Assembly: GCA_021808195.1 (NCBI GenBank)
Contig: JAKBCE010000072.1
Coordinates: forward strand, 1 to 12,023
DNA length: 12,023 bases
Source of the DNA: Pseudomonadota bacterium
Lineage (GTDB): Bacteria > Pseudomonadota > Gammaproteobacteria > Steroidobacterales > Steroidobacteraceae
Direction: 5' to 3'
Shown: piece after piece, positions 1-11,755 of the stretch
Layout: each line of letters begins with the position of its first letter
Position numbering within the stretch: position 1 is the stretch's first letter
Translations under genes and position numbers: made by a program
Notes under the pieces: model-generated
The model's database searches: none
Told to the model about the DNA's origin: nothing
The model's input: only the letters and a program-made list of their open reading frames with translations

Positions 1-1303
1 CTACCGGCGCCTGCGCCTGGGATTCGAGCCATCGGACCTCGCCGACGATGCACTCGAGCAATTCTTCGTAGCTCGAACAGGCGGTATCCACCCGGCGCCG
101 CTGCAGAGGCCGGAACTGTTCATCGAACAGGCAGGTTTCAATCTTGCTGCCGCCGACATCCATGCCGCCGAACAGCCGCACTTTCGGGGCAGGAGGCGGA
201 TACAGCCGCACGCCCTGCACGACCCGCGACAGATTTCCGTCTGGAAACGGATTATCGACATTTAATCCCAGCTTCTGCGACCAGGCCACCGCCAGCAACT
301 GCGCGGGCAGCACGTACAGCGGAATGTTCCAACCGCGAGGCACTTCATTGAAGGCAAGATCGGCGTCAGCCCGCACCGTGCCGACCGTCAGCACCTGCTC
401 TGGGGCGTACTGGCTGCGCAACTCATCGACCACGTCGGCATCGTACCGGCGCGCATCCTCGTCCGAGGACAGCAGCGCGATGACCTGCGTGCCGTCGTTC
501 ACGAGAGACTTCGGACCGTGCCGAAAGCCCAGCGGAGACTCCCAGAACGAGGCGACCTGACCCGCCGTCAATTCCAGCACCTTCAGCGCACACTCATGCG
601 CCGCTCCACGCAGCTCTCCTCCGCCGAGGAACGCCACTCGCTGGGGCGGCGCCAGATCGGCCGCCAAGGGCGCAACCGCCGCAATCAGACCGCTGGCAGC
701 ATCTGCAAGCGCATTCAATCGTCCCTCGAGCGCATCGATTGGCACATCATCAAAGACGGCGAGCGCGTACAGCAGCATCGTGCTGTAGCTCGACGTCATT
801 GCAAAACCGGCATCGTGGGTCTCATCCGGCAGCACGATCGCGCGTTGCCGGGACCCCTCAGAGCGCGCCAGTGCGCCGTGAGCATTGCATGTGATGTGCA
901 AGCCCGCGGCGTCGGCTCGCTCGAGCAGCGCCAAGGTCGCCACGCTCTCAGGGCTGTCCCCACTGCGTCCAAAGGAAACCACCAATCGACGTGTACCGCG
1001 CCGCAGCAGACGCTGCGGATATGCCACGAGTTCCGTGGTCGGCACCGGGATGTATCGCACCGCGGATTGGCGCTCGTTGAGGTAGACGCTAAGCGACTCG
1101 CCGATGAACGCAGAGGTACCGGCGCCGCAAAACCACACCTCCTCGAAACGACCGGCGCGGACCCAGTGACGCGCATCCGCGGCCATCGCCGCGATCTCGC
1201 GACTCACGGCTCGCCAGACGGCCGGCTGATGCAGGATCTCCTTGCGCGTCTGGGAATCATCCGGCGGAACCGTAGACGGACCGCCCTGCCTGCCTTGGAA
1301 CAT
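1..1303 (-). CDS. AgaS-type SIS isomerase/deaminase fused to ROK sugar kinase (3' part beyond left edge)
   Basis: Reading from ATG at 1303 the frame stays open for 434 residues to the window edge. Residues about 20-371 are an AgaS-type double-SIS protein: GAGTSAFIGE (60-69), FGRSGDSPESVA (111-122), FAMTSSYSTM (167-176), FRHGPKSLVND (260-270) and RVVQGV (360-365), where AgaS proteins normally end. After a short Pro-rich linker (PPPAPK), FGGMDVGGSKIET (378-390) is the N-terminal phosphate-binding loop of a ROK kinase. AgaS converts galactosamine-6-P to tagatose-6-P with loss of ammonia; ROK kinases phosphorylate (N-acetyl)hexosamines or hexoses at O6. The start is supported by AGGAGAGG 9 nt upstream, 20 nt after the regulator stop, so it is co-transcribed. 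The internal ATG at 163 has no good ribosome site, favouring a true fusion over two genes. The kinase substrate motifs lie outside the window; GalNAc is inferred from context, GlcNAc is possible. Cytoplasmic. Confidence 0.88.
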   Translation of the reverse strand, partial: MFQGRQGGPSTVPPDDSQTRKEILHQPAVWRAVSREIAAMAADARHWVRAGRFEEVWFCGAGTSAFIGESLSVYLNERQSAVRYIPVPTTELVAYPQRLLRRGTRRLVVSFGRSGDSPESVATLALLERADAAGLHITCNAHGALARSEGSRQRAIVLPDETHDAGFAMTSSYSTMLLYALAVFDDVPIDALEGRLNALADAASGLIAAVAPLAADLAPPQRVAFLGGGELRGAAHECALKVLELTAGQVASFWESPLGFRHGPKSLVNDGTQVIALLSSDEDARRYDADVVDELRSQYAPEQVLTVGTVRADADLAFNEVPRGWNIPLYVLPAQLLAVAWSQKLGLNVDNPFPDGNLSRVVQGVRLYPPPAPKVRLFGGMDVGGSKIETCLFDEQFRPLQRRRVDTACSSYEELLECIVGEVRWLESQAQAPV

Positions 1304-1323
1304 GCTTTGAATCCTCTCCTGTC

Positions 1324-2274
1324 CTATCTACGCGCCTTGCGCCGCCCCGTGGCTCGAACTCCGGTCCGGGGATCGACGCAATGCACCGCGACCCCGAGTT
1401 CCTCAATCTGTTCCACCGCCACAGGATCTGCGTCAGTGTCCGTCACGATCATGTGGACTTTGCGGATGTCGCAGATTCGATGCAGACTCGGCGTGCCGAA
1501 TTTCGAAGAATCCGCGAGCACCACGACACGGTCGCTCGCGCGGATCATGGCCGCGTTCTTCTGCGCCTCCTCCTCGTTGAAAGTACTCAAGCCGAGACGC
1601 AAATCGATGGCGTCGGCGCCGAGGAAGAAGGTATCGAAATGCAACTCCGTGAGGAACCGCTCGAGAAACCGTCCGCCGATCACCATCGTGTCGTAACGAA
1701 CCGTGCCGGCAGGGACGATCACTTCATGCTGCTTGTAATGGCGCAGCAGATTCACCACCTCGAGATCGGCGGTGAGAATCGAGAGCCCGCGAGCCTCCCC
1801 CAGCTGCGTCGCGAACATGCGCAGCGTCGATCCCGAATCGATGATGATCGAGCGCTCCCGCTCAATCAGCCCGGCCGCGTAGCGCACGATAGAGCGCTTT
1901 TTGTTGACGTTGACCTGCTCGCGATCCGAGACGCTGGGTGCAATAAGATTGAGCCTGAAATCCGGCAGCTCACGCGCCAAGGCTTTCGCCAGCTCGATAC
2001 GAAACTCCGGAACGCCCTTGCAACCATAGTGCTTGCAGTAGCGCACGATGCTCGGCTCGCTGACGCCAGCCCCGGCCGCAATGGTTCGCAGCGGTGCGTG
2101 CATGAATGAATCCGGATCAGCCACCAGGTAACTGCCGATCCGGCCGAACGCCTTGGAAAGATGACCGATATCGGCGCGAATCCGCTCGAGCAGATCGCCC
2201 GGCGCATCGCGTTCGCCCGAATCTGCCCTGGCTGCGGCGGCCGGTCCATTGGAATTTCTTGTTTGGGGACTCAT
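1324..2274 (-). CDS. Chimeric transcriptional regulator: RpiR-type HTH plus DeoR-type sensor domain
   Basis: This 316-aa protein regulates transcription, very probably of its own sugar operon. Residues about 27-100 match the RpiR N-terminal HTH (LRTIAAGAGVSEPSIVRYC, 62-80, then GCKGVPEFRIELA). Residues about 127-300 are not the SIS sensor expected in an RpiR protein but a DeoR C-terminal sensor: IDSGSTL (145-151), LTADLEVVNLL (167-177), IVPAGTVR (186-193), FFLGADAIDLRLGLS (216-230), a conserved Glu in EEEAQKN, VVLADSSKFG (251-260) and IVTDTD (276-281). DeoR-type sensors bind phosphorylated sugars and usually relieve repression. The ATG at 2274 overlaps the TGA of the permease gene (ATGA), implying translational coupling; upstream in-frame codons lie inside the permease gene. 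AgaR of known GalNAc operons is a normal DeoR protein, so the sensor class fits while the DNA-binding domain has been exchanged. Effector and operator are inferred. Confidence 0.9.
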   Translation of the reverse strand: MSPQTRNSNGPAAAARADSGERDAPGDLLERIRADIGHLSKAFGRIGSYLVADPDSFMHAPLRTIAAGAGVSEPSIVRYCKHYGCKGVPEFRIELAKALARELPDFRLNLIAPSVSDREQVNVNKKRSIVRYAAGLIERERSIIIDSGSTLRMFATQLGEARGLSILTADLEVVNLLRHYKQHEVIVPAGTVRYDTMVIGGRFLERFLTELHFDTFFLGADAIDLRLGLSTFNEEEAQKNAAMIRASDRVVVLADSSKFGTPSLHRICDIRKVHMIVTDTDADPVAVEQIEELGVAVHCVDPRTGVRATGRRKARR

Positions 2275-3545
2275 GAAAGCGCTCCAATCCGTGCGCGGCT
2301 CGTTCTGATGCGCTTCTGCGCAAACAGCGCGTAGCTGAGGATGACTGCATACATGGGCACGAGCGAAATATACGCCAGTTGGTTGCCGATGACGCGCGCA
2401 AGCAGACCGTACGCTGGCGGAACTACTGCGCCGCCGATGATGGCCATGATCATGATCGCCGCACCGGTCTTGGTGTGCTCGCTGAGCCCGGTGAGTGCCA
2501 GGGGAAAAATAGCCGGCCACAGGACCGCATTGGCAAAGCCGAGCGATGCCACGAAAAGGATGCTGGGCATGCCATGCGTCACGGTGATTCCGATCGTCAG
2601 TACGATCCCGAGTGCAGCGGACCAGGCGAGCGCTCGCTCCTGGCTCATGCGCTTAGGCACGAGCACAATGCCGAGCAGGTAACCGAGAACCATCGCTCCG
2701 AGGGTGAGACTGGCGAAGAAGCGTGCCGTCTCGATCGGAAAGTGCAGCGCTTGACCGTAAAGAACGATGGTGTCGCCGGCAATCACCTCGACGGCCATCT
2801 CAAAGAACAACGCCCAGAAGCCGAACAGCAACAACGGGTGATGCGACCAGCGAAAGCCCTGCCGACGCTCACTCTGGTCGAGCTCCGCCGGCGGCTCCTT
2901 CGGCTCAGGAAGGCCGGAACGCCCGATTGCAAAAGCCAGGATCAGCAGCCCGACGGCCAGTGCCAAGTAGGGCGGAATGAGCCGGTGCGCCAGCTGGTTG
3001 AGCTCCGCGGCTCCCAACGTGCCGCGCGCCGCATGCTGCAGATGCCCGAATCCGACGAACACCACCGCGCCGAGCAGCATCGGGCTGATCACGCCGGCGA
3101 GTTTGTTGCACACGCCCATGATCGACACGCGCCGCGCTGCACTTTCGTGCGGCCCGAGAATGATCACATATGGATTCGCAGCCGTCTGCAGCAGACACAG
3201 CCCGGTACCCTGCACGAACAATCCGCTCAGGAATATACCGTACGAGCGCAGCAGCGCCGCTGGCACGAAGACTGCTGTGCCCACTGCCATCACGGCCAGT
3301 CCGAGTGCCATGCCTCTTTTGTAACCGGTGATCGCCAGAACACGGGCCGAGGGAATCGCCATGACGAAGTAGGCGATGTAGAAGGCGAAGGCAACCAGCA
3401 GCGCCTCGAAGGTGTCAAGCTCGCACACCAGCTTCAAGAACGGGATCAGCACGCCGTTCAGCCAGGTCACACAGCCGAACAGCGCGAACAGTCCCGCCAT
3501 GAGCGCGAGCGCGCGCCGGTCGGTGCCTTTGGGGGTTGATTTCAT
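2271..3545 (-). CDS. FucP/GluP/NagP-type MFS sugar permease
   Basis: This 424-aa inner-membrane protein has about 12 hydrophobic segments and a hydrophilic central loop (about 209-233), as in MFS sugar:H+ symporters. Family marks are ALFGCVTWLNGVLIPFLK (21-38), matching the first helix of the FucP/GluP group, and GLCLLQTAANPYV (115-127), the QTAANPY motif of that group. FEMAVEVIAGDTI (247-260) corresponds to the conserved C-half helix with an acidic residue. The family imports L-fucose, glucose/galactose or N-acetylhexosamines. Next to AgaS-like and ROK enzymes and a GH27 glycosidase, GalNAc (or galactose/GlcNAc) is the likely cargo, by context only. The start at 3545 follows GGGAGAGGAAG on the minus strand; an upstream in-frame extension is Arg/Gly-rich and unlike the family. 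The stop overlaps the regulator start by 4 nt. A 142-nt gap separates it from the upstream GH27 gene. Confidence 0.9.
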   Translation of the reverse strand: MKSTPKGTDRRALALMAGLFALFGCVTWLNGVLIPFLKLVCELDTFEALLVAFAFYIAYFVMAIPSARVLAITGYKRGMALGLAVMAVGTAVFVPAALLRSYGIFLSGLFVQGTGLCLLQTAANPYVIILGPHESAARRVSIMGVCNKLAGVISPMLLGAVVFVGFGHLQHAARGTLGAAELNQLAHRLIPPYLALAVGLLILAFAIGRSGLPEPKEPPAELDQSERRQGFRWSHHPLLLFGFWALFFEMAVEVIAGDTIVLYGQALHFPIETARFFASLTLGAMVLGYLLGIVLVPKRMSQERALAWSAALGIVLTIGITVTHGMPSILFVASLGFANAVLWPAIFPLALTGLSEHTKTGAAIMIMAIIGGAVVPPAYGLLARVIGNQLAYISLVPMYAVILSYALFAQKRIRTSRARIGALS

Positions 3546-3565
3546 CTTCCTCTCCCGACCGCTCA

Positions 3566-3599
3566 CCCGGAGTGCCCGCACGCAGTGCGTGCCCCGGAG
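3566..3599. repeat. 15-bp palindrome flanked by 7-bp direct repeats, upstream of the permease
   Basis: Between the GH27 and permease genes, GCACGCA and TGCGTGC (3578-3584, 3586-3592) form a perfect inverted repeat around one base. CCCGGAG occurs on both sides (3566-3572 and 3593-3599). It lies about 33-47 nt before the permease start. It could be an operator half-site pair or a small mRNA hairpin; no T-run follows, so a terminator is unlikely. Confidence 0.35.
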
Positions 3600-3687
3600 G
3601 CGGCCGACCCGCCCTGTGCGCACGAGGCCCGGGCCGGGCAGCATCCGACGGCCACCCCAACCCGGACTTCAATTGAACGCATCGCCG

Positions 3688-5448
3688 TCACCGCAAAGCC
3701 CGACGCGCATCCATGGCAGCCGGCACGCTCCAGATCTGCGATGCCAGGTTGTGTCCGCAGGCCTGCACGGTCAGAGCACCGCTCGCACCCCCGGTCAGGC
3801 ACTGATGCGTGCTCTGGTTGATGAGGTTGCCCAGGAGTGTGTAGCGCCACCGCTGCAGTGCACTCGTGACGCACGCGCTGAGGCGGGCACTGTGGCCGAC
3901 CTGGGCAAGGCATCGTCCGCCAGAGCGCAGTGCGCCGTTCGGCAGGACTTGCCAGCTCTGCGCGCCTGACCCTGTGCACTCACCGACTGAGCCGGGCGCT
4001 GAAAGGCAGCGGGTATATGCCATTGCCGTGCGATCGTGGGGTGCAACGTTCGGGCGGATGCGGGTAATGACACCCATGCGCTGCGGAACACCGCAAGCGG
4101 CAGTCGGCCGGATGGTCCAGATCTGCGTGTCATGCGTCCCGATGTGTGCCTCGAGTTCCTGCGCGCCCGCCCGGCGCGAGCCGGTCCAGAGCGCAACGCT
4201 TTCGAATCGGCAGGCGCCACCGGAGAGGCCGAGCGCACGCGGGTACAGCACCACATGCAGGGGGTGCTCGCTGCGGTTGAGGACCGCAACAGCGTACCGG
4301 CCATCACTCAGCGGCTTCATCAGCACATCCTCGGCCGGGGTGCGTCGCAGCAGCGTCGCCATCTGACCCAGCGGATCCTGATCGACGGCGAGAACCGCTC
4401 TGTTGCCGAGGATACGGATGCTGGCCGCGGAAAGCTTATTCAGGTTCGAGCTGAGAATCAGCGGCGCGGACATCATCGACCAGAGCGCCAGCTGGCTGCG
4501 CGATTCGGCGAGCGTCATACCCCGATCACCGCCGATAATGAAGTCCGAATCGTTCCAGTTGCCGGGCTTCTGGAACCGGCCGAGCTGCAGGTTGTACTCG
4601 TAATTCCACATGACGCTGGCCCAGCGCGAACGATTCGGACGATGGGGGTCGAAAATCTCGATGTCCGAGCCCTCGCGCCAGAGCTGCCCATAGCCACGCA
4701 CCCAGCTGAGCACGTCATACCACTGCGGCGTTCCCTGAAAATAGGCCGGCGCGGATTCGGAGAAGACGATCGGCCGACCCACCTGCTTCAGCGCCTCGCT
4801 TTCGGCCTTATAGGCCGCCCGATACGCCGCAATGGCTGACTCGCCCTTGGCGGTATATACGTTGCAGCCATCCAGTTTCAGGTAATCGACGCCCCAGGAC
4901 GCGAATAGACGCGCATCCGCCAGGAAATGCGCTGCGCCACCACCGTTCGGGACGCCGCTGCCAGCGAAACCACCGCAGGTCGCATAGCCGGCATCCTCGT
5001 AAATACCGAACTTCAACCCGAGCGCGTGGATGCTAGTGGCGACGGCATGCATGCCCTGCGGAAACTTGTGCAGATTGGCCTGCAGGTTCCCGTTGCTGTC
5101 GCGCTGCTTGCGCATCCAGCAATCGTCGATGGTGACCGTGTCGTAGCCGCGAGCTGCAAGACCGGTTTTTACGAGCGCACGGGCATTACCCAGAATCACG
5201 TTGGAATCGATGCGGCACTGATAGTGGGCCCAGTCGTTCCATCCCATCGGTGGGGTCGGCGCAAGGACCCCAGCGGCGCTGGCCGCCGGAGCAAAGACAA
5301 TTCCAAGCCAAAGCAGTGCCTGCAGCAGCATGAAGGCGGCGGCGCTGCGAGCACCGGATCCCGCCAGTTTGCGAAGCCGCCCGGCCGGCGAGGGGGGCCT
5401 ACGACCTACCTGAGCCGAAACCGCAGGGAAAGATGTCATGTAAGCCAT
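3688..5448 (-). CDS. Secreted GH27 glycosidase (alpha-galactosidase / alpha-N-acetylgalactosaminidase) with C-terminal ricin-type domain
   Basis: This 586-aa exported enzyme hydrolyses terminal alpha-linked galactose-type sugars. A basic N-terminus and hydrophobic stretch (about 36-55) end in APAASA/AG near residue 58, a signal peptidase I-like site; the 35-residue n-region is long, so a start at Met4 (5439) is also possible. The GH27 barrel begins LAPTPPMGWNDW (62-73), with TIDDCW (106-111, paired Asp binding sugar hydroxyls), GIYEDAG (148-154), the nucleophile Asp193 in YLKLDGC and the acid/base Asp262 in LWREGSDI. FSESAPAY (229-236) puts Ser232 and Ala235 where human NAGA has Ser188/Ala191 and alpha-galactosidase A has Glu203/Leu206, favouring N-acetylgalactosamine. 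A beta-sandwich (about 350-445) follows, then a ricin-type beta-trefoil with three QxW repeats (QSW 497, QRW 532, QIW 571). GH27 also contains beta-L-arabinopyranosidases, so specificity is inferred. It is first in the minus-strand sugar locus. Confidence 0.92.
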   Translation of the reverse strand: MAYMTSFPAVSAQVGRRPPSPAGRLRKLAGSGARSAAAFMLLQALLWLGIVFAPAASAAGVLAPTPPMGWNDWAHYQCRIDSNVILGNARALVKTGLAARGYDTVTIDDCWMRKQRDSNGNLQANLHKFPQGMHAVATSIHALGLKFGIYEDAGYATCGGFAGSGVPNGGGAAHFLADARLFASWGVDYLKLDGCNVYTAKGESAIAAYRAAYKAESEALKQVGRPIVFSESAPAYFQGTPQWYDVLSWVRGYGQLWREGSDIEIFDPHRPNRSRWASVMWNYEYNLQLGRFQKPGNWNDSDFIIGGDRGMTLAESRSQLALWSMMSAPLILSSNLNKLSAASIRILGNRAVLAVDQDPLGQMATLLRRTPAEDVLMKPLSDGRYAVAVLNRSEHPLHVVLYPRALGLSGGACRFESVALWTGSRRAGAQELEAHIGTHDTQIWTIRPTAACGVPQRMGVITRIRPNVAPHDRTAMAYTRCLSAPGSVGECTGSGAQSWQVLPNGALRSGGRCLAQVGHSARLSACVTSALQRWRYTLLGNLINQSTHQCLTGGASGALTVQACGHNLASQIWSVPAAMDARRALR

Positions 5449-6109: not shown

Positions 6110-6315
6110 ACCACAGACATCCCCGCATCAATCCGCCACAGTGGATCCGACGACGCAGATTGATCGAACACCGGGCGCCCACCCTCGCGACACGAAGATA
6201 TGCACCAGCAGTCAATGCCACATGCACCCTTGATCATAGCCGGCGCCTGGTGTTGGAGATTGATTGCTGCAGCGGCGTTTTTCCCGGACATTTCCACGCA
6301 TCGCCCTACCGCATG

Positions 6316-6334
6316 TTGTGCATACAATGTACAA
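6316..6334 (+). promoter_or_regulatory. 19-bp palindrome around a -10-like box, upstream of the efflux gene
   Basis: TTGTGCATACAATGTACAA has arms TTGTGCAT and ATGTACAA matching at 7 of 8 positions around ACA. It contains TACAAT (6323-6328), one base from the sigma70 -10 consensus, so a bound dimer could block a promoter. No good -35 hexamer sits 16-18 bp upstream. Sites of this shape are common for MarR- and GntR-type regulators of efflux pumps, but no such regulator gene is in the window. It precedes the possible leader ORF by 34 nt. Confidence 0.4.
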
Positions 6335-6367
6335 TTTCAGCGCTCGATGCATTCTCGAGGAAGGTTC

Positions 6368-6490
6368 ATGAGTGGAAATGCAAGCGTCAGCCGTATCAGA
6401 CTACGCACCCTCGCGCAGGCGTCGCAACCTGTTCGCACTTACGACTGTGCGCACCATCGGCCTGCAGCTCGTGCCGGTGTGACTCGATGA
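6368..6490 (+). CDS. Possible 40-aa leader peptide upstream of the efflux gene
   Basis: An ATG at 6368 has a strong ribosome site (GAGGAAGG, 3 nt before the start) and opens a 40-codon frame ending VTR-stop. Its TGA (6488-6490) overlaps ATG 6487, which is in frame with the downstream efflux protein, in the ATGA arrangement of coupled genes. The peptide is Arg/Ala-rich and resembles no family I know. A competing 34-codon frame from ATG 6378 (stop 6480-6482) overlaps it, so which one is translated, if either, is unclear. Confidence 0.25.
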   Translation: MSGNASVSRIRLRTLAQASQPVRTYDCAHHRPAARAGVTR

Positions 6491-6651
6491 ACCGCCGCAT
6501 TGCGGCCAAATCCGACAGCCCCCTCGACGCCTCGTCTGATACGCACCGACCCGGCACTGAAGCGAATTTCACGCACGAAGTGCCGCCGCCACCGCGAGAC
6601 AGCCACGATTCCGCTCGCGCTAGCGACTCCGCTAAGAACTCAAAGAGCCAG

Positions 6652-8193
6652 ATGACCCGCAGGTCACGCCCGGCGCACGCGCGAATCGCGTCCCGTTTTT
6701 TCCACAAATACTCCGACAGACGTGGGCTCATTGCGCGCGACAAGTGGCAATGGGCAGTGCTCACGGTCGTGTTGCTCGGCGCGACGATGTCTGCGCTCGA
6801 CGTAACCATCGTCAATATCGCCCTGCCGACGATCAAGCATGAGTTCGGCTCGACGCTCGCCGCCGTCGAGTGGGTCGCCATGGCGTACATGATCGTGCTG
6901 GCCCTGGCGCTACCGATCGTGGGTCGGCTCGCCGACATCTTTGGCCGAAGCCTCCTGTACAACATAGGCTTCGGCGTATTCATCGTGGGATCCGCGCTAT
7001 GCGGCTTCGCTCCGGGCATCTTTACTCTGGTCGTTGCACGCGCGCTGCAGGCAATCGGGGCTGCGTTATTGCAGGCCAACTCAGTTGCGCTCATCACGCA
7101 GGTATTCCGCAGCCGGGAACTCGGCCGTGCCCTGGGCGCCCAAGCCGCGGTTCAAGGGACGGCGATGGCACTCGGACCGTTCGTCGGCGCAATGCTCATC
7201 ACGTTCGCGGGTTGGCGCTTCATTTTCTTCGTCAACGTCCCGATCGGAATCGCCGGCGCCGTTGCGGCGCATTACATCCTACCCCGGCATCATCGGCGCC
7301 GCCGGGACGTCAAACTCGACTATCTGGGCAGCGTCCTGCTCACCGTCGGATTGATGGCGCTCGTGCTGGCCGTCAATAAGGCGGGTTCGGCCGGCTGGGC
7401 CTCACCGCTGATCCTCTCCCACCTGCTGCTCGGCGTCGTGTGCATCGCGGCATTCGTGATTACCGAACGTCTCGTGAAGCACCCGACCATCGATCCCTCG
7501 CTGTTTCGCAGATACACGATTGCGGCGGGGAATATCACGGCGTTCCTGGCGTACTATGTATTGTTTGCCGTTCTGTTCCTGCTGCCATTCTATTTCGAGG
7601 AGGTCCTCGATTACAGCGCTGCGCGTACGGGCATCATGCTGACGGCAGTGCCGTTATCCATGGCGCTGCTCGCGCCGTTCGCGGGCCGCACCTCCGATCG
7701 GCTGGGTTCGCGCAAGTTTCTGGTCGGCGGCTCTCTGTTGCTGGCCTTGGGGTCACTGTCCCTCGTCTTCGCCAAGAACACCACGGGACCCGTGCCACTC
7801 GTGATCGAGATGCTGGTTCTCGGCGCGGGTCTGGGCATGTTCACACCGGCGAACAATCGCGCCACGATGGCGGCGACTCCACGCGACAAGCTCGGCATGA
7901 CTGGTGGATTTCTCAACATGATGCGCTCCTTGGGCGTCATCCTCGGAATCGACATCTCCGGCATGTTGTTTCTGGCCGTCAGCGGCGCTCATTCCGCCGC
8001 ACACAGAGGCGGAGTCGGCGAGGATCGGGAGGCACTGGCGCTGTCCAGCAAGCCCGCGTTCATGGACGGGCTGCACGTGGTGATGATGACGCTCGTGGGT
8101 GTCGCGCTGCTCTGCGCGGTGTTTTCGTATTTCCGCAAGAACGACTCGGAGAAGGAGTCACCCACGGTGCATATTGAACCGATGGGTGCTTGA
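6652..8193 (+). CDS. DHA2-family (EmrB/QacA-type) 14-TM drug efflux MFS transporter
   Basis: From ATG 6652 the protein is 513 aa, normal for 14-helix DHA2 pumps that export drugs or metabolites by H+ antiport. Seen in order: LDVTIVNIALPTI (49-61), the helix-1 motif of DHA2; GRLADIFGRS (91-100), motif A; ARALQAIGAALLQANS (129-144), motif B; and TAMALGPFVGAML (170-182), motif C with the GP pair. A charged C-terminal tail follows the last helix. The frame is open upstream; an alternative start at ATG 6487 would add 55 hydrophilic residues and would be coupled by ATGA to a 40-codon leader ORF. 6652 is chosen because family members begin shortly before the first helix; its ribosome site (AAAGAG) is weak, so the start is uncertain. 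No emrA-like adaptor gene or regulator is adjacent. Confidence 0.88.
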   Translation: MTRRSRPAHARIASRFFHKYSDRRGLIARDKWQWAVLTVVLLGATMSALDVTIVNIALPTIKHEFGSTLAAVEWVAMAYMIVLALALPIVGRLADIFGRSLLYNIGFGVFIVGSALCGFAPGIFTLVVARALQAIGAALLQANSVALITQVFRSRELGRALGAQAAVQGTAMALGPFVGAMLITFAGWRFIFFVNVPIGIAGAVAAHYILPRHHRRRRDVKLDYLGSVLLTVGLMALVLAVNKAGSAGWASPLILSHLLLGVVCIAAFVITERLVKHPTIDPSLFRRYTIAAGNITAFLAYYVLFAVLFLLPFYFEEVLDYSAARTGIMLTAVPLSMALLAPFAGRTSDRLGSRKFLVGGSLLLALGSLSLVFAKNTTGPVPLVIEMLVLGAGLGMFTPANNRATMAATPRDKLGMTGGFLNMMRSLGVILGIDISGMLFLAVSGAHSAAHRGGVGEDREALALSSKPAFMDGLHVVMMTLVGVALLCAVFSYFRKNDSEKESPTVHIEPMGA

Positions 8194-9204: not shown

Positions 9205-10428
9205 ATGTCTGCAACCGCTGCGCTGCACGCCATCGATTCAGTGCTGATTGTCGACGACAGCGGCGTCCAACGGAGCATTGGCGCGGCGCTGTGCCGGGGG
9301 ATGCGCATCAGCCAGATCCACCAGGCCGAGGACGGGGTGGCTGCGCTCGCGTTGCTCGATGCGCTGCCGGCGCCGCCCGATCTGGTGATCGTCGATCTGG
9401 AGATGCCGAACATGGACGGGCCGGAGCTGCTGGCGGAGCTTTCGGCACGGCGGCTGCGCTCCCCGGTGATCGTCGCCTCTTCGCGCGAGAGCTCGCTGCG
9501 TCATTCCGTCGAAGACATGGGGACGGCACTCGGGCTGCGCATCCTCGGCAGCCTGCCGAAACCGCTGACGCAGGAGGGGCTCGGCACGCTCCTGCAGCGC
9601 CAACCGGGCAATACGCCGGCGCGCGATCCGCGCAACACCACGCCGGTCGATCCCCAGGAGCTGAGCGGCGCACTCGAGCGCGGCGAAATCACGGCCTTCT
9701 ATCATCCGCAGGTGGAAATCGGCACGTGCAGTGTGCGGGGCCTGGAGGCACTCGCCCGCTGGCACCATCCGACCCGCGGCTGGATCGCCCCGGACGCCTT
9801 CATCCCAGTGGCCGAACAGCATGGCCTGATTCACGCCCTGACGCTGCGCGTGATGGACCTCGCCATGGCGCAGACCGCGCAGTGGGCGCATCAGGGACTG
9901 GACCTGTCAATCGCGGTGAACATCTCCCCGCTGCTGCTCGATCGGGGCGAGCTCGTGCAGGAGATCTCCGACCTGCAGCGCAAGCACGGACTGCGTGCCG
10001 AACAGGTGGTGCTCGAGGTGACCGAGAGCACTCTGCTGCGCGAACTGGCCGTCGCGCTCGGCGTGCTGACGCGGCTGCGGCTGCGCGGCTTCCGGCTGTC
10101 GCTGGATGACTACGGCCACGGCTTCTCCTCCATGCAGCAGCTGGCCCGCATCCCGTTCACCGAACTGAAGATCGACCGCAGCTTCGTGCACGGCGCCGCT
10201 GACCGCGAGAGTCTTCAGGTCATCCTGCGCTCGGCTCTCGACATGGCGAGCGAGCTCGGGCTGGAGACCGTCGCCGAAGGCGTCGAGTCCCTGCAGGACT
10301 GGCAACTCGTGCGCCAGTACGGCTGCACGCTGGCGCAGGGCTGGCTGCTCGCCAAGGCGATGTCGCCGACGGACTTCGAGCCCTGGCTGCAACGCCTGCG
10401 CCAGCATCGCGCCGAACTGCTCGCCTGA
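9205..10428 (+). CDS. REC-EAL response regulator, cyclic-di-GMP phosphodiesterase (RocR-like)
   Basis: This 407-aa cytoplasmic protein hydrolyses c-di-GMP to pGpG under control of a receiver domain. REC (about 10-125) has the acidic pair Asp17/Asp18, phosphoacceptor Asp64 in VIVDLEMP, Ser92/Ser93 at the switch position and Lys119 in LPKP, so it should be phosphorylatable. EAL (about 150-400) has E181-A-L, Asn239, Glu271 and Glu274 (EVTES), Asp301-Asp302, Lys322 (LKIDRSF), Glu358 (VAEGVE) and Gln378. These match the catalytic residues of Pseudomonas RocR with a constant offset of six, predicting an active enzyme. Loop 6 reads DDYGHGFSS, His replacing the usual Thr of DFGTGYSS. No histidine kinase gene is adjacent. 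The start at 9205 places the first REC strand normally; the ribosome site is weak. It diverges from tRNA-Val. Confidence 0.93.
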   Translation: MSATAALHAIDSVLIVDDSGVQRSIGAALCRGMRISQIHQAEDGVAALALLDALPAPPDLVIVDLEMPNMDGPELLAELSARRLRSPVIVASSRESSLRHSVEDMGTALGLRILGSLPKPLTQEGLGTLLQRQPGNTPARDPRNTTPVDPQELSGALERGEITAFYHPQVEIGTCSVRGLEALARWHHPTRGWIAPDAFIPVAEQHGLIHALTLRVMDLAMAQTAQWAHQGLDLSIAVNISPLLLDRGELVQEISDLQRKHGLRAEQVVLEVTESTLLRELAVALGVLTRLRLRGFRLSLDDYGHGFSSMQQLARIPFTELKIDRSFVHGAADRESLQVILRSALDMASELGLETVAEGVESLQDWQLVRQYGCTLAQGWLLAKAMSPTDFEPWLQRLRQHRAELLA

Positions 10429-10510: not shown

Positions 10511-11755
10511 GTGCCCCAGCGCCTTCCCCACAACGTTCGCTGCCTGCTCTCGGCCCGCGCGGTCCGCAGCATCGGCCAGGGTGCGACTGTGGCGAGCTTC
10601 AGTCTGTATCTGCATGCGCTGGGTTTCAGCGGCGCGGCAATCGGCCTGGTGCTCATGGCGGGCCTCGCGTTCGGGGCGCTGCTGACGCTGTTCATCGGCC
10701 CGTTGAGCGACCGGGTGAGCCGGCGCCGACTGCTCATCATTTATGAGTTCGCGGCGGCCGCCGCGGCGCTGGCTGCGATTGTCTCACCCAACGAAGCGGT
10801 GTTGATCGCTGCGGCCACCCTCGCCGGCTTCGGACGCGGCGCCAACGGCGCGGCCGGCCCCTTCTCACCCGTCGAGCAAGCCTGGCTCGCCCGCGAAGTC
10901 GACGGCGAGGCGCGCCGACGCGCCCTGTCCTTCAACGCGACGCTGGGGTTCGTGGGCATGGGCGCGGGCGCGCTGCTCGTCGGCGTGCCCCCGCTGCTCG
11001 GCTTCGGCTACCACGACCTGACCAGCTTTCGCATCCTCTTCACCCTGCCGCTGCTCGGCTCACTCGCCTCGCTGGCGCTGATCGGCTGGACGCGCGAGGC
11101 GCCGCCCGCCGCACCGGTCGCAGCCCCGCAGGAGCACCTCGAGGCGCAGATCAAGCGCGATGAGAACCGCCGCATCCGCAAGCTGGCGCTCACCAACGCC
11201 GTCAACGGACTGGCGATCGGCATCATCGCGCCGCTGATCGCCTACTGGTTCCTGCGCCGCTTCGGGGAGGGGCCGGCGGTCATCGGACCGGCGCTGGCCG
11301 CGAGCTTCGCACTGGCGACGCTGGGGGCGGTACTGGCGCACTGGCTGAGCCGGCGCATCGGCACCGTGCGCGCCGTGACGGCGATGCGCCTGGTCGGACT
11401 CGCCCTGATGCTCTGCATCCCGTTCTCGCCGGACTTCGGTCTCGCTGCGGCACTGTATGCAGCACGCGGCCTGTTCAACCGCGGCACGGCCGGCGTACGC
11501 CAGGCGGTGGCGGCCGGACTGACCCGCGCCGAGCGGCGCGGTACGGCCGCAAGCGTCCAAAACCTCTCGATGCAGATTCCGCGCGCGATCGGTCCGGTGC
11601 TCGGCGGCTGGCTCATCCATCGCGGCGAGTTCACTGCACCCTTCATGATCGCCGCGGCGCTGCAGGCGCTGTACATCGTGCTCTACCAGCGCTTCTTCGG
11701 CGGCGTGGAGGAGACCGCCCGGAACGCTGCAGCTGCCGGCGGCGAGCCGCCCTAG
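10511..11755 (+). CDS. MFS transporter, 12-TM, substrate unknown
   Basis: This 414-aa inner-membrane protein starts at GTG 10511 (ATG 10501 is out of frame) and shows about 12 hydrophobic segments in two halves split by a charged loop near residues 195-220 (EHLEAQIKRDENRRIRK). The helix 2-3 loop reads GPLSDRVSRRRLL (63-75), a clear MFS motif A; a related SRRIGTVRA lies in the second half. Helix 4 begins GFGRGANGAAGPFSPVEQAWLA (107-128 region). The fold places it among DHA1-like exporters or general MFS permeases; no substrate motif is recognisable. It follows the REC-EAL gene by 82 nt on the same strand and might share its transcript, though nothing links the functions. The ribosome site is weak, as for other starts here. 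Confidence 0.85.
   Translation: MPQRLPHNVRCLLSARAVRSIGQGATVASFSLYLHALGFSGAAIGLVLMAGLAFGALLTLFIGPLSDRVSRRRLLIIYEFAAAAAALAAIVSPNEAVLIAAATLAGFGRGANGAAGPFSPVEQAWLAREVDGEARRRALSFNATLGFVGMGAGALLVGVPPLLGFGYHDLTSFRILFTLPLLGSLASLALIGWTREAPPAAPVAAPQEHLEAQIKRDENRRIRKLALTNAVNGLAIGIIAPLIAYWFLRRFGEGPAVIGPALAASFALATLGAVLAHWLSRRIGTVRAVTAMRLVGLALMLCIPFSPDFGLAAALYAARGLFNRGTAGVRQAVAAGLTRAERRGTAASVQNLSMQIPRAIGPVLGGWLIHRGEFTAPFMIAAALQALYIVLYQRFFGGVEETARNAAAAGGEPP

What the first reader, a model, noticed from the sequence alone, without database searches (positions are those of the whole stretch)
1..1303. AgaS-type SIS enzyme fused in frame to a ROK sugar kinase
Seen: one uninterrupted frame carries all AgaS signatures to the normal AgaS C-terminus and then, after a six-residue Pro-rich linker, the start of a ROK kinase (MDVGGSKIET). 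Known: in GalNAc pathways the kinase (AgaK) and deaminase/isomerase (AgaS) are separate proteins acting at steps 1 and 3, with a deacetylase between. Inference: a bifunctional enzyme joining two non-consecutive steps, perhaps scaffolding an AgaA/NagA-type deacetylase.
Basis: partly seen in the sequence, partly recalled or inferred. Interest (0 to 1): 0.7.

Follow-up and report, generated by a model that had tools for sequence, protein, structure and literature searches.

The report
Fused two-step enzyme for N-acetylgalactosamine breakdown
One bacterial protein joins a sugar kinase to a sugar-phosphate deaminase, likely enzymes for the first and third steps of breaking down N-acetylgalactosamine that well-studied bacteria keep separate; the fusion is real and recurs in other bacteria, but each half resembles a known enzyme.

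Summary
Window 2-1303 (-) is the first 434 codons of one frame: an AgaS-type double-SIS domain, a short Pro-rich linker and the start of a ROK kinase. A 99%-identical relative (P0001, 675 aa) has the whole ROK domain with intact catalytic and zinc residues. 79 of the 120 best-listed homologues carry both parts. The ATG at 163 is not a conserved start (Met in 14 of 42 fusions). The operon points to N-acetylgalactosamine (GalNAc): GH27 glycosidase with alpha-NAGAL-type residues, NagP-like transporter, regulator, fusion, then in relatives AgaZ, NagA/AgaA-type deacetylase and TonB receptor. Most likely function: GalNAc kinase plus galactosamine-6-phosphate deaminase (steps 1 and 3). In five Rhodobacterales loci the two genes are separate, overlapping by ATGA. 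Three genomes of the family lost the SIS half; all three have a stand-alone AgaS. The fusion is uncommon (4 of 296 sampled genomes of the order; 0 of 385 sampled Alphaproteobacteria). Five literature searches found no description. Scaffolding of the deacetylase is untested. Verdict: real, coherent, a new variant of a known kind; moderate interest.

The parts
2..1303 (-). Fused gene agaS-ROK kinase, first 434 codons; runs off the window's left end (P0001 is 675 aa)
   Evidence: open frame; full-length relatives
200..1252 (-). AgaS-type domain (double SIS), residues 18-368; putative catalytic K241, E244, H262, R360 (roles by analogy with GlmS, recalled)
   Evidence: (PDB 3c3j, 3odp, 3i0z)
170..199 (-). 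Linker, residues 369-378 (PPPAPKVRLF)
   Evidence: lower model confidence at residues 351-380 (blocks 70, 65, 79)
2..169 (-). Start of ROK sugar-kinase domain (GGMDVGGSKIET...), residues 379-434; the rest lies left of the window, seen in P0001 and L001
161..163 (-).
1313..1320 (-). Likely ribosome-binding site AGGAGAGG of the fused gene
   Evidence: by eye
1324..2274 (-). Regulator with RpiR-type HTH and DeoR C-terminal sensor domain (AgaR-like); start overlaps the transporter stop (ATGA)
2271..3644 (-). NagP/GluP/FucP-type MFS sugar transporter (start uncertain)
3688..5448 (-). GH27 glycosidase with ricin-B lectin domain; SESAPAY carries the Ser and Ala of alpha-N-acetylgalactosaminidase (start uncertain; secretion not tested)

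Best explanation
The gene encodes one bifunctional cytoplasmic enzyme of GalNAc catabolism. Its C-terminal ROK domain phosphorylates GalNAc at C6 with ATP (inferred from family and residues). A separate NagA/AgaA-type deacetylase, encoded downstream in relatives, removes the acetyl group (inferred). The N-terminal AgaS domain then deaminates and isomerises galactosamine-6-phosphate to tagatose-6-phosphate (inferred from E. coli AgaS genetics), which enters the AgaZ/KbaZ branch. GalNAc would be released by the GH27 enzyme and taken up through the TonB receptor and the NagP-like permease (inferred). The simplest reason for the fusion is that two adjacent, overlapping genes lost the stop codon between them, giving fixed 1:1 stoichiometry; a channelling role is not needed to explain it.
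For: Complete domains in P0001 and invariant active sites in 42 of 42 fusions. Of six side chains that bind GlcNAc in P. shigelloides NagK (S78, N104, D105, E154, H157, D187; passages of PMC10031466), five are identical in the fusion and the sixth is Asp to Glu, by counting along the alignment. AlphaFold2 model: mean pLDDT 88.9; Foldseek matches E. coli and pneumococcal AgaS-type structures and NagK structures. Context: in 8 of 8 fused genome loci L001-L008 GH27, transporter, regulator and deacetylase are alongside; AgaZ in 7 of 8; TonB receptor in 7 of 8, the eighth contig ending first. Same core regulator-fusion-AgaZ-deacetylase in Sinorhizobium L058. GH27 residues Ser and Ala in the window and 10 relatives. 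E. coli agaS mutants are blocked on GalNAc and galactosamine (PMC3668189, abstract). Separate overlapping agaS-ROK pairs in L009-L013. Three ROK-only loci nested in the fused clade, all in genomes with a stand-alone AgaS.
Against: No biochemistry. The SIS part scores 294 bits against the curated AgaS-family cut-off of 529, and the ROK part 224 against 380 for the NagK equivalog, so neither is an orthodox member. No feature tested separates GalNAc from GlcNAc kinase activity. Transporter and deacetylase are closest to GlcNAc-named families (NagP, NagA). The deacetylase has Lys at the R227 position in the window's lineage. G003 has a fusion and a stand-alone AgaS together.
Confidence: 0.78

Rival explanations
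1. Deacetylation comes first: the deacetylase acts on free GalNAc, and the fused enzyme then phosphorylates galactosamine and deaminates galactosamine-6-phosphate, so the two fused steps are consecutive.
For: It would give the fusion a simple channelling logic. The 11 deacetylases of the window's lineage have Lys where the other 8 compared have Arg.
Against: The deacetylase belongs to the NagA/AgaA family; two mycobacterial NagA enzymes showed no activity on unphosphorylated GlcNAc (PMC6016474 passages). Lys keeps the charge, and the fused Sinorhizobium locus L058 keeps Arg. The kinase matches N-acetyl-sugar kinases best.
Confidence: 0.1
2. The operon and the fused enzyme serve GlcNAc (chitin or peptidoglycan sugar), with glucosamine-6-phosphate as the deaminase substrate.
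For: Transporter and deacetylase match GlcNAc-named profiles (NagP_SO3503, NagA); the kinase matches NagK structures.
Against: AgaS rather than NagB or GlmD is the best profile; AgaZ/KbaZ, a tagatose-branch protein, follows in 7 of 8 fused loci; GH27 with alpha-NAGAL-type residues is in the operon.
Confidence: 0.1
3. The fusion brings kinase and deaminase together to capture the deacetylase and channel intermediates, or builds a larger assembly because both halves belong to dimer-forming families. It is an addition to the best explanation, not an alternative to it.
For: Deacetylase gene close to the fusion in 8 of 8 loci; linker length conserved (34 of 42 have 10 residues between fixed points); the architecture is kept between lineages only 47-54% identical. 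NagK is a dimer (PMC10031466 passages); dimerisation of AgaS is recalled.
Against: No interaction, complex model or kinetics available; the SIS half was lost without loss of the locus in three genomes, and other relatives keep the genes separate.
Confidence: 0.12
4. Assembly or sequencing error joined two overlapping genes.
For: In five Rhodobacterales loci the two genes overlap by ATGA, so one small indel would merge them.
Against: Both parts are in one protein in 79 of 120 listed homologues from several sources, in eight genome loci with no stop inside and on a Sinorhizobium plasmid record (L058).
Confidence: 0.01

Closest known systems
AgaS, galactosamine-6-phosphate deaminase/isomerase (E. 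coli; PDB 3c3j)
   Same: Residues 17-369 align (E 1.4e-60), same fold, K, E, H, R positions kept
   Different: E. coli AgaS is a separate 384-residue protein; here it is the N-terminal half of a larger one, about 38% identical
ROK-family N-acetylglucosamine kinase NagK (P. shigelloides 7p7i series, V. vulnificus 4db3)
   Same: Whole ROK domain aligned (E 1.3e-48 and 9.1e-54), zinc motif and sugar-binding residues kept
   Different: Separate enzymes for GlcNAc; here fused and predicted to act on GalNAc
Shewanella GalNAc pathway (AgaP, AgaK, AgaA, AgaS, AgaZ, outer-membrane receptor)
   Same: Same set of roles without a PTS (PMC2996990 and PMC12118421, passages)
   Different: There AgaK and AgaS are listed as separate genes; the Shewanella AgaK sequence was not compared here
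Other sugar-kinase fusions: human GNE (epimerase plus ManNAc kinase), bifunctional regulator/glucokinase PRK14101
   Same: A sugar kinase joined in one chain to a pathway or regulatory partner (names appear; details recalled)
   Different: GNE joins consecutive steps and PRK14101 a kinase to a regulator (recalled); AgaS domains are not part of either (recalled)

Membership tests
AgaS family (TIGR02815) | Profile score at or above the curated cut-off (529.2 bits) | tested here: not met
   294 bits, E 1.4e-87, over profile positions 4-371 of 372
AgaS family (TIGR02815) | Complete double-SIS fold and putative catalytic K, E, H, R | tested here: met
   catalytic roles by analogy with GlmS, recalled
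AgaS family (TIGR02815) | Galactosamine-6-phosphate deaminase/isomerase activity | not testable with these tools
   needs an assay
ROK family (PF00480) | Profile above gathering score, with catalytic Asp and CxCGxxGC zinc motif | tested here: met
   P0001: 196.6 bits against 22.9; D480, H532, C550, C552, C557 in 42 of 42
N-acetylglucosamine kinase equivalog (NF009835) | Profile score at or above 380 bits | tested here: not met
   223.9 bits
GalNAc catabolic operon | Deacetylase of NagA/AgaA type and AgaZ/KbaZ alongside agaS and a kinase | tested here: met
   in relatives L001-L008: deacetylase 8 of 8, AgaZ 7 of 8; these genes lie outside the window itself
GalNAc catabolic operon | Induction by GalNAc and growth on it | not testable with these tools
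   no organism in hand
GH27 alpha-N-acetylgalactosaminidase | Ser and Ala in place of Glu and Leu of alpha-galactosidase A | tested here: met
   alignments to 1ktb, 1r46 and 3lx9; window plus 10 relatives; meaning of the two positions recalled

The most novel reading that the evidence does not exclude
The fused protein is an organising subunit: two dimer-forming families are tied head to tail, giving an assembly that holds the deacetylase between kinase and deaminase, so GalNAc passes through three steps on one particle. This would be a natural metabolon linking non-consecutive steps around a free middle enzyme.
Probability: 0.1. Interest if true: 0.65.

Novelty: new variant of a known kind. 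Interest (0 to 1): 0.4.

Why it matters
If the assignment is right, this is a ready-made case of a bifunctional enzyme joining steps 1 and 3 of a short pathway. Nature also supplies the controls: overlapping separate genes in Rhodobacterales, the fusion in Steroidobacteraceae-type genomes and Rhizobiaceae, and kinase-only derivatives in genomes with a stand-alone AgaS. That makes the question of why non-consecutive enzymes fuse directly testable. It also helps annotation: the automatic names seen for these proteins (ROK family protein; FrlB-like deglycase/sugar kinase) miss the likely GalNAc role.

Tried and rejected
Whole-genome check of the window's own genome: none held. One origin of the fusion versus several: the joint SIS+ROK tree of 43 rows (thinned at 80% identity from 87 fused rows and 10 pairs) needs two changes, but a single fused clade is not rejected (AU p 0.188). 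A quick SIS-only tree of 59 rows (thinned from 153) needs six changes, at least two forced by starred branches; two rows there (P0062, P0075) look like truncated or frame-shifted fusions but were counted as separate. The ROK tree needs three changes for the fused label. So I draw no conclusion on the number of fusion events. Alphaproteobacterial fusions in sampled genomes: none of 385 (E limit 1e-50, at most three candidates scored per genome), although Rhizobiaceae fusions exist (L058), so the sample only shows rarity. Literature: five searches gave no title or abstract describing an AgaS-ROK fusion; listed were 9 of 9, 4 of 4, 20 of 60, 40 of 1,196 and 2 of 2 papers, and of the 40 only four concern the aga genes. 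Passages on AgaS, AgaK, fusion or ROK were read in three of these papers and do not mention one. The key Shewanella paper (Leyn 2012) is not held and was not read. The scaffold idea could not be tested.

Full report
What was checked. The frame at window 2-1303 on the minus strand is open from an ATG with a good ribosome-binding site (AGGAGAGG, 1313-1320, by eye) to the left edge. Profile searches place the AgaS family over residues 18-369 and the beginning of an N-acetylglucosamine-kinase-type ROK domain from residue 378. The window's own contig cannot be followed further left, but a relative with 99% identity over all 434 residues shows the whole protein: P0001, 675 aa, with ROK at 379-674. 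One search lists the best 120 of 7,860 matches; 79 of the 120 carry both halves (count by script; the extraction agrees: 87 rows with both domains, eight of them loci).

Integrity of both active sites. In an alignment of 42 fusions (42 of the 79) the SIS residues K241, E244, H262 and R360, which by recalled analogy with GlmS are the catalytic set, and the ROK residues N479, D480, E529, H532, C550, C552 and C557 are identical in all 42. PsNagK binds GlcNAc through S78, N104, D105, E154, H157 and D187 (PMC10031466, passages); counting along the printed alignment, five are identical in the fusion and D187 is Glu. AlphaFold2 on P0001 with this alignment gives mean pLDDT 88.9 and pTM 0.75, with lower confidence around the linker. 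Foldseek returns AgaS-type structures (3i0z, 3c3j, 3odp), NagK structures (7p7w, 4db3) and 2ap1 (deposited as a putative regulatory protein), each over one half; among the 50 rows shown no solved chain covers both.

Not two proteins from one frame. The ATG at window 163 is M381. That column is Ile in 24, Met in 14, Leu in 3 and Val in 1 of 42 fusions, so a separate kinase start there is not conserved.

Surroundings. Reading in the direction of transcription the window holds a GH27 glycosidase with a ricin-B lectin domain (3688-5448), an MFS transporter of the NagP/GluP/FucP group (2271-3644), a regulator (1324-2274) whose start overlaps the transporter stop, and the fusion. In L001, beyond the position of the window's left edge, follow AgaZ/KbaZ (PF08013, E 2.6e-147), a NagA/AgaA-type deacetylase and a TonB receptor. 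In the eight fused genome loci L001-L008, GH27, transporter, regulator and deacetylase are present in 8 of 8, AgaZ in 7 (absent in L007) and the TonB receptor in 7 (L008 ends first); L003 and L007 come from one genome. The GH27 motif SESAPAY has the Ser and Ala of alpha-N-acetylgalactosaminidase where alpha-galactosidase A has Glu and Leu. Of 11 relatives looked at, 8 agree by the motif search and 2 more by eye (L004, L005); L062 gave no match. That the two positions set the specificity is recalled.

Order of the steps. The known route is kinase or PTS, deacetylase, AgaS (PMC12118421, passages; E. coli genetics in PMC3668189, abstract). Two mycobacterial NagA enzymes needed an anionic group at C6, and changing a conserved Arg abolished activity (PMC6016474, passages); that this Arg corresponds to E. 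coli NagA R227 is my inference. In 19 deacetylases compared, six metal or catalytic positions are identical in all 19, but the R227 position is Arg in 8 (E. coli AgaA, L058, L059, L009-L013) and Lys in the 11 of the window's lineage. Non-consecutive steps are therefore likely, not proven.

Distribution and history. Of the 15 loci, eight are fused, six have separate adjacent genes (L009-L014) and one is kinase-only (L015). In L009-L013 the two genes overlap by the four bases ATGA; in L014 a short gap separates them. Paracoccus seriniphilus is annotated the same way, with a four-base overlap, and AgaZ-type and amidohydrolase genes next. In Rhizobiaceae the fusion occurs on a Sinorhizobium plasmid with regulator, AgaZ and deacetylase alongside. 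Sampling: fusion in 4 of 296 genomes of the order, 4 of 200 of the family (the same genomes), 0 of 385 of the class of L009 (E limit 1e-50, at most three candidates scored per genome). The tree of 33 fused and 10 separate pairs does not decide between one and more fusion events (AU p 0.188).

Loss of the SIS half. Three family genomes (G009, G787, G794) have only the kinase half, 75-77% identical to that of P0001, directly behind the regulator. Their kinases fall inside the fused clade (99/98 support for 34 fused plus 3 kinase-only), so the SIS half was most likely lost, once. G009 and G787 encode a stand-alone AgaS about 10 kb away on the same contig; G794 has one on another contig, where the split of a TonB receptor gene over two contig ends suggests the same cluster. 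Of seven other genomes with a fusion reached through loci, six (G001, G002, G004-G007) showed no stand-alone AgaS at E 1e-15; G003, with two fusions, did. The genomes are mostly metagenome assemblies and the loss is one event, so this is consistent with the SIS half being an AgaS, not a statistical test.

Verdict. The most economical account is a bifunctional GalNAc kinase / galactosamine-6-phosphate deaminase formed from an overlapping gene pair. Both halves fall below NCBI's cut-offs for the named AgaS and NagK families, so they are AgaS-type and NagK-type, not certified members. Five searches of the held library (partial listings in 21 and 59) showed no paper on the fusion, but databases already carry the architecture under automatic names. 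It is a new variant of a known kind, of moderate interest; channelling or scaffolding is open.

Noticed in passing
window 1324-2274 (-): Chimeric regulator: RpiR-type HTH (PF01418) joined to a DeoR C-terminal sensor (PF00455). 75 of the 120 listed homologues have both domains; ten contig lengths of fused proteins recur in that list, suggesting linkage. The same chimera stands before the fusion in Sinorhizobium L058 and before the separate pair in Paracoccus L059.
   Followed up: partly
L016 581-2922 and L017 3016-5354: Second GalNAc-like cluster with stand-alone AgaS next to a BcrAD_BadFG-type kinase gene instead of a ROK kinase.
   Followed up: partly
L015/L016, L061, L062: Kinase-only derivatives of the fusion: SIS half missing between regulator and kinase, AgaZ also missing next to the kinase, deacetylase kept.
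   Followed up: yes
G003 (L003 and L007/L017): One metagenome-assembled genome carries two different fused genes (92% and 75% identical to P0001) plus a stand-alone AgaS; could be a mixed bin.
   Followed up: no
window 9205-10428 (+): Response regulator receiver plus EAL domain protein (c-di-GMP phosphodiesterase type), outside the operon.
   Followed up: no
window 6160-8193 (+) and 10511-11755 (+): Two further MFS transporters on the other strand.
   Followed up: no
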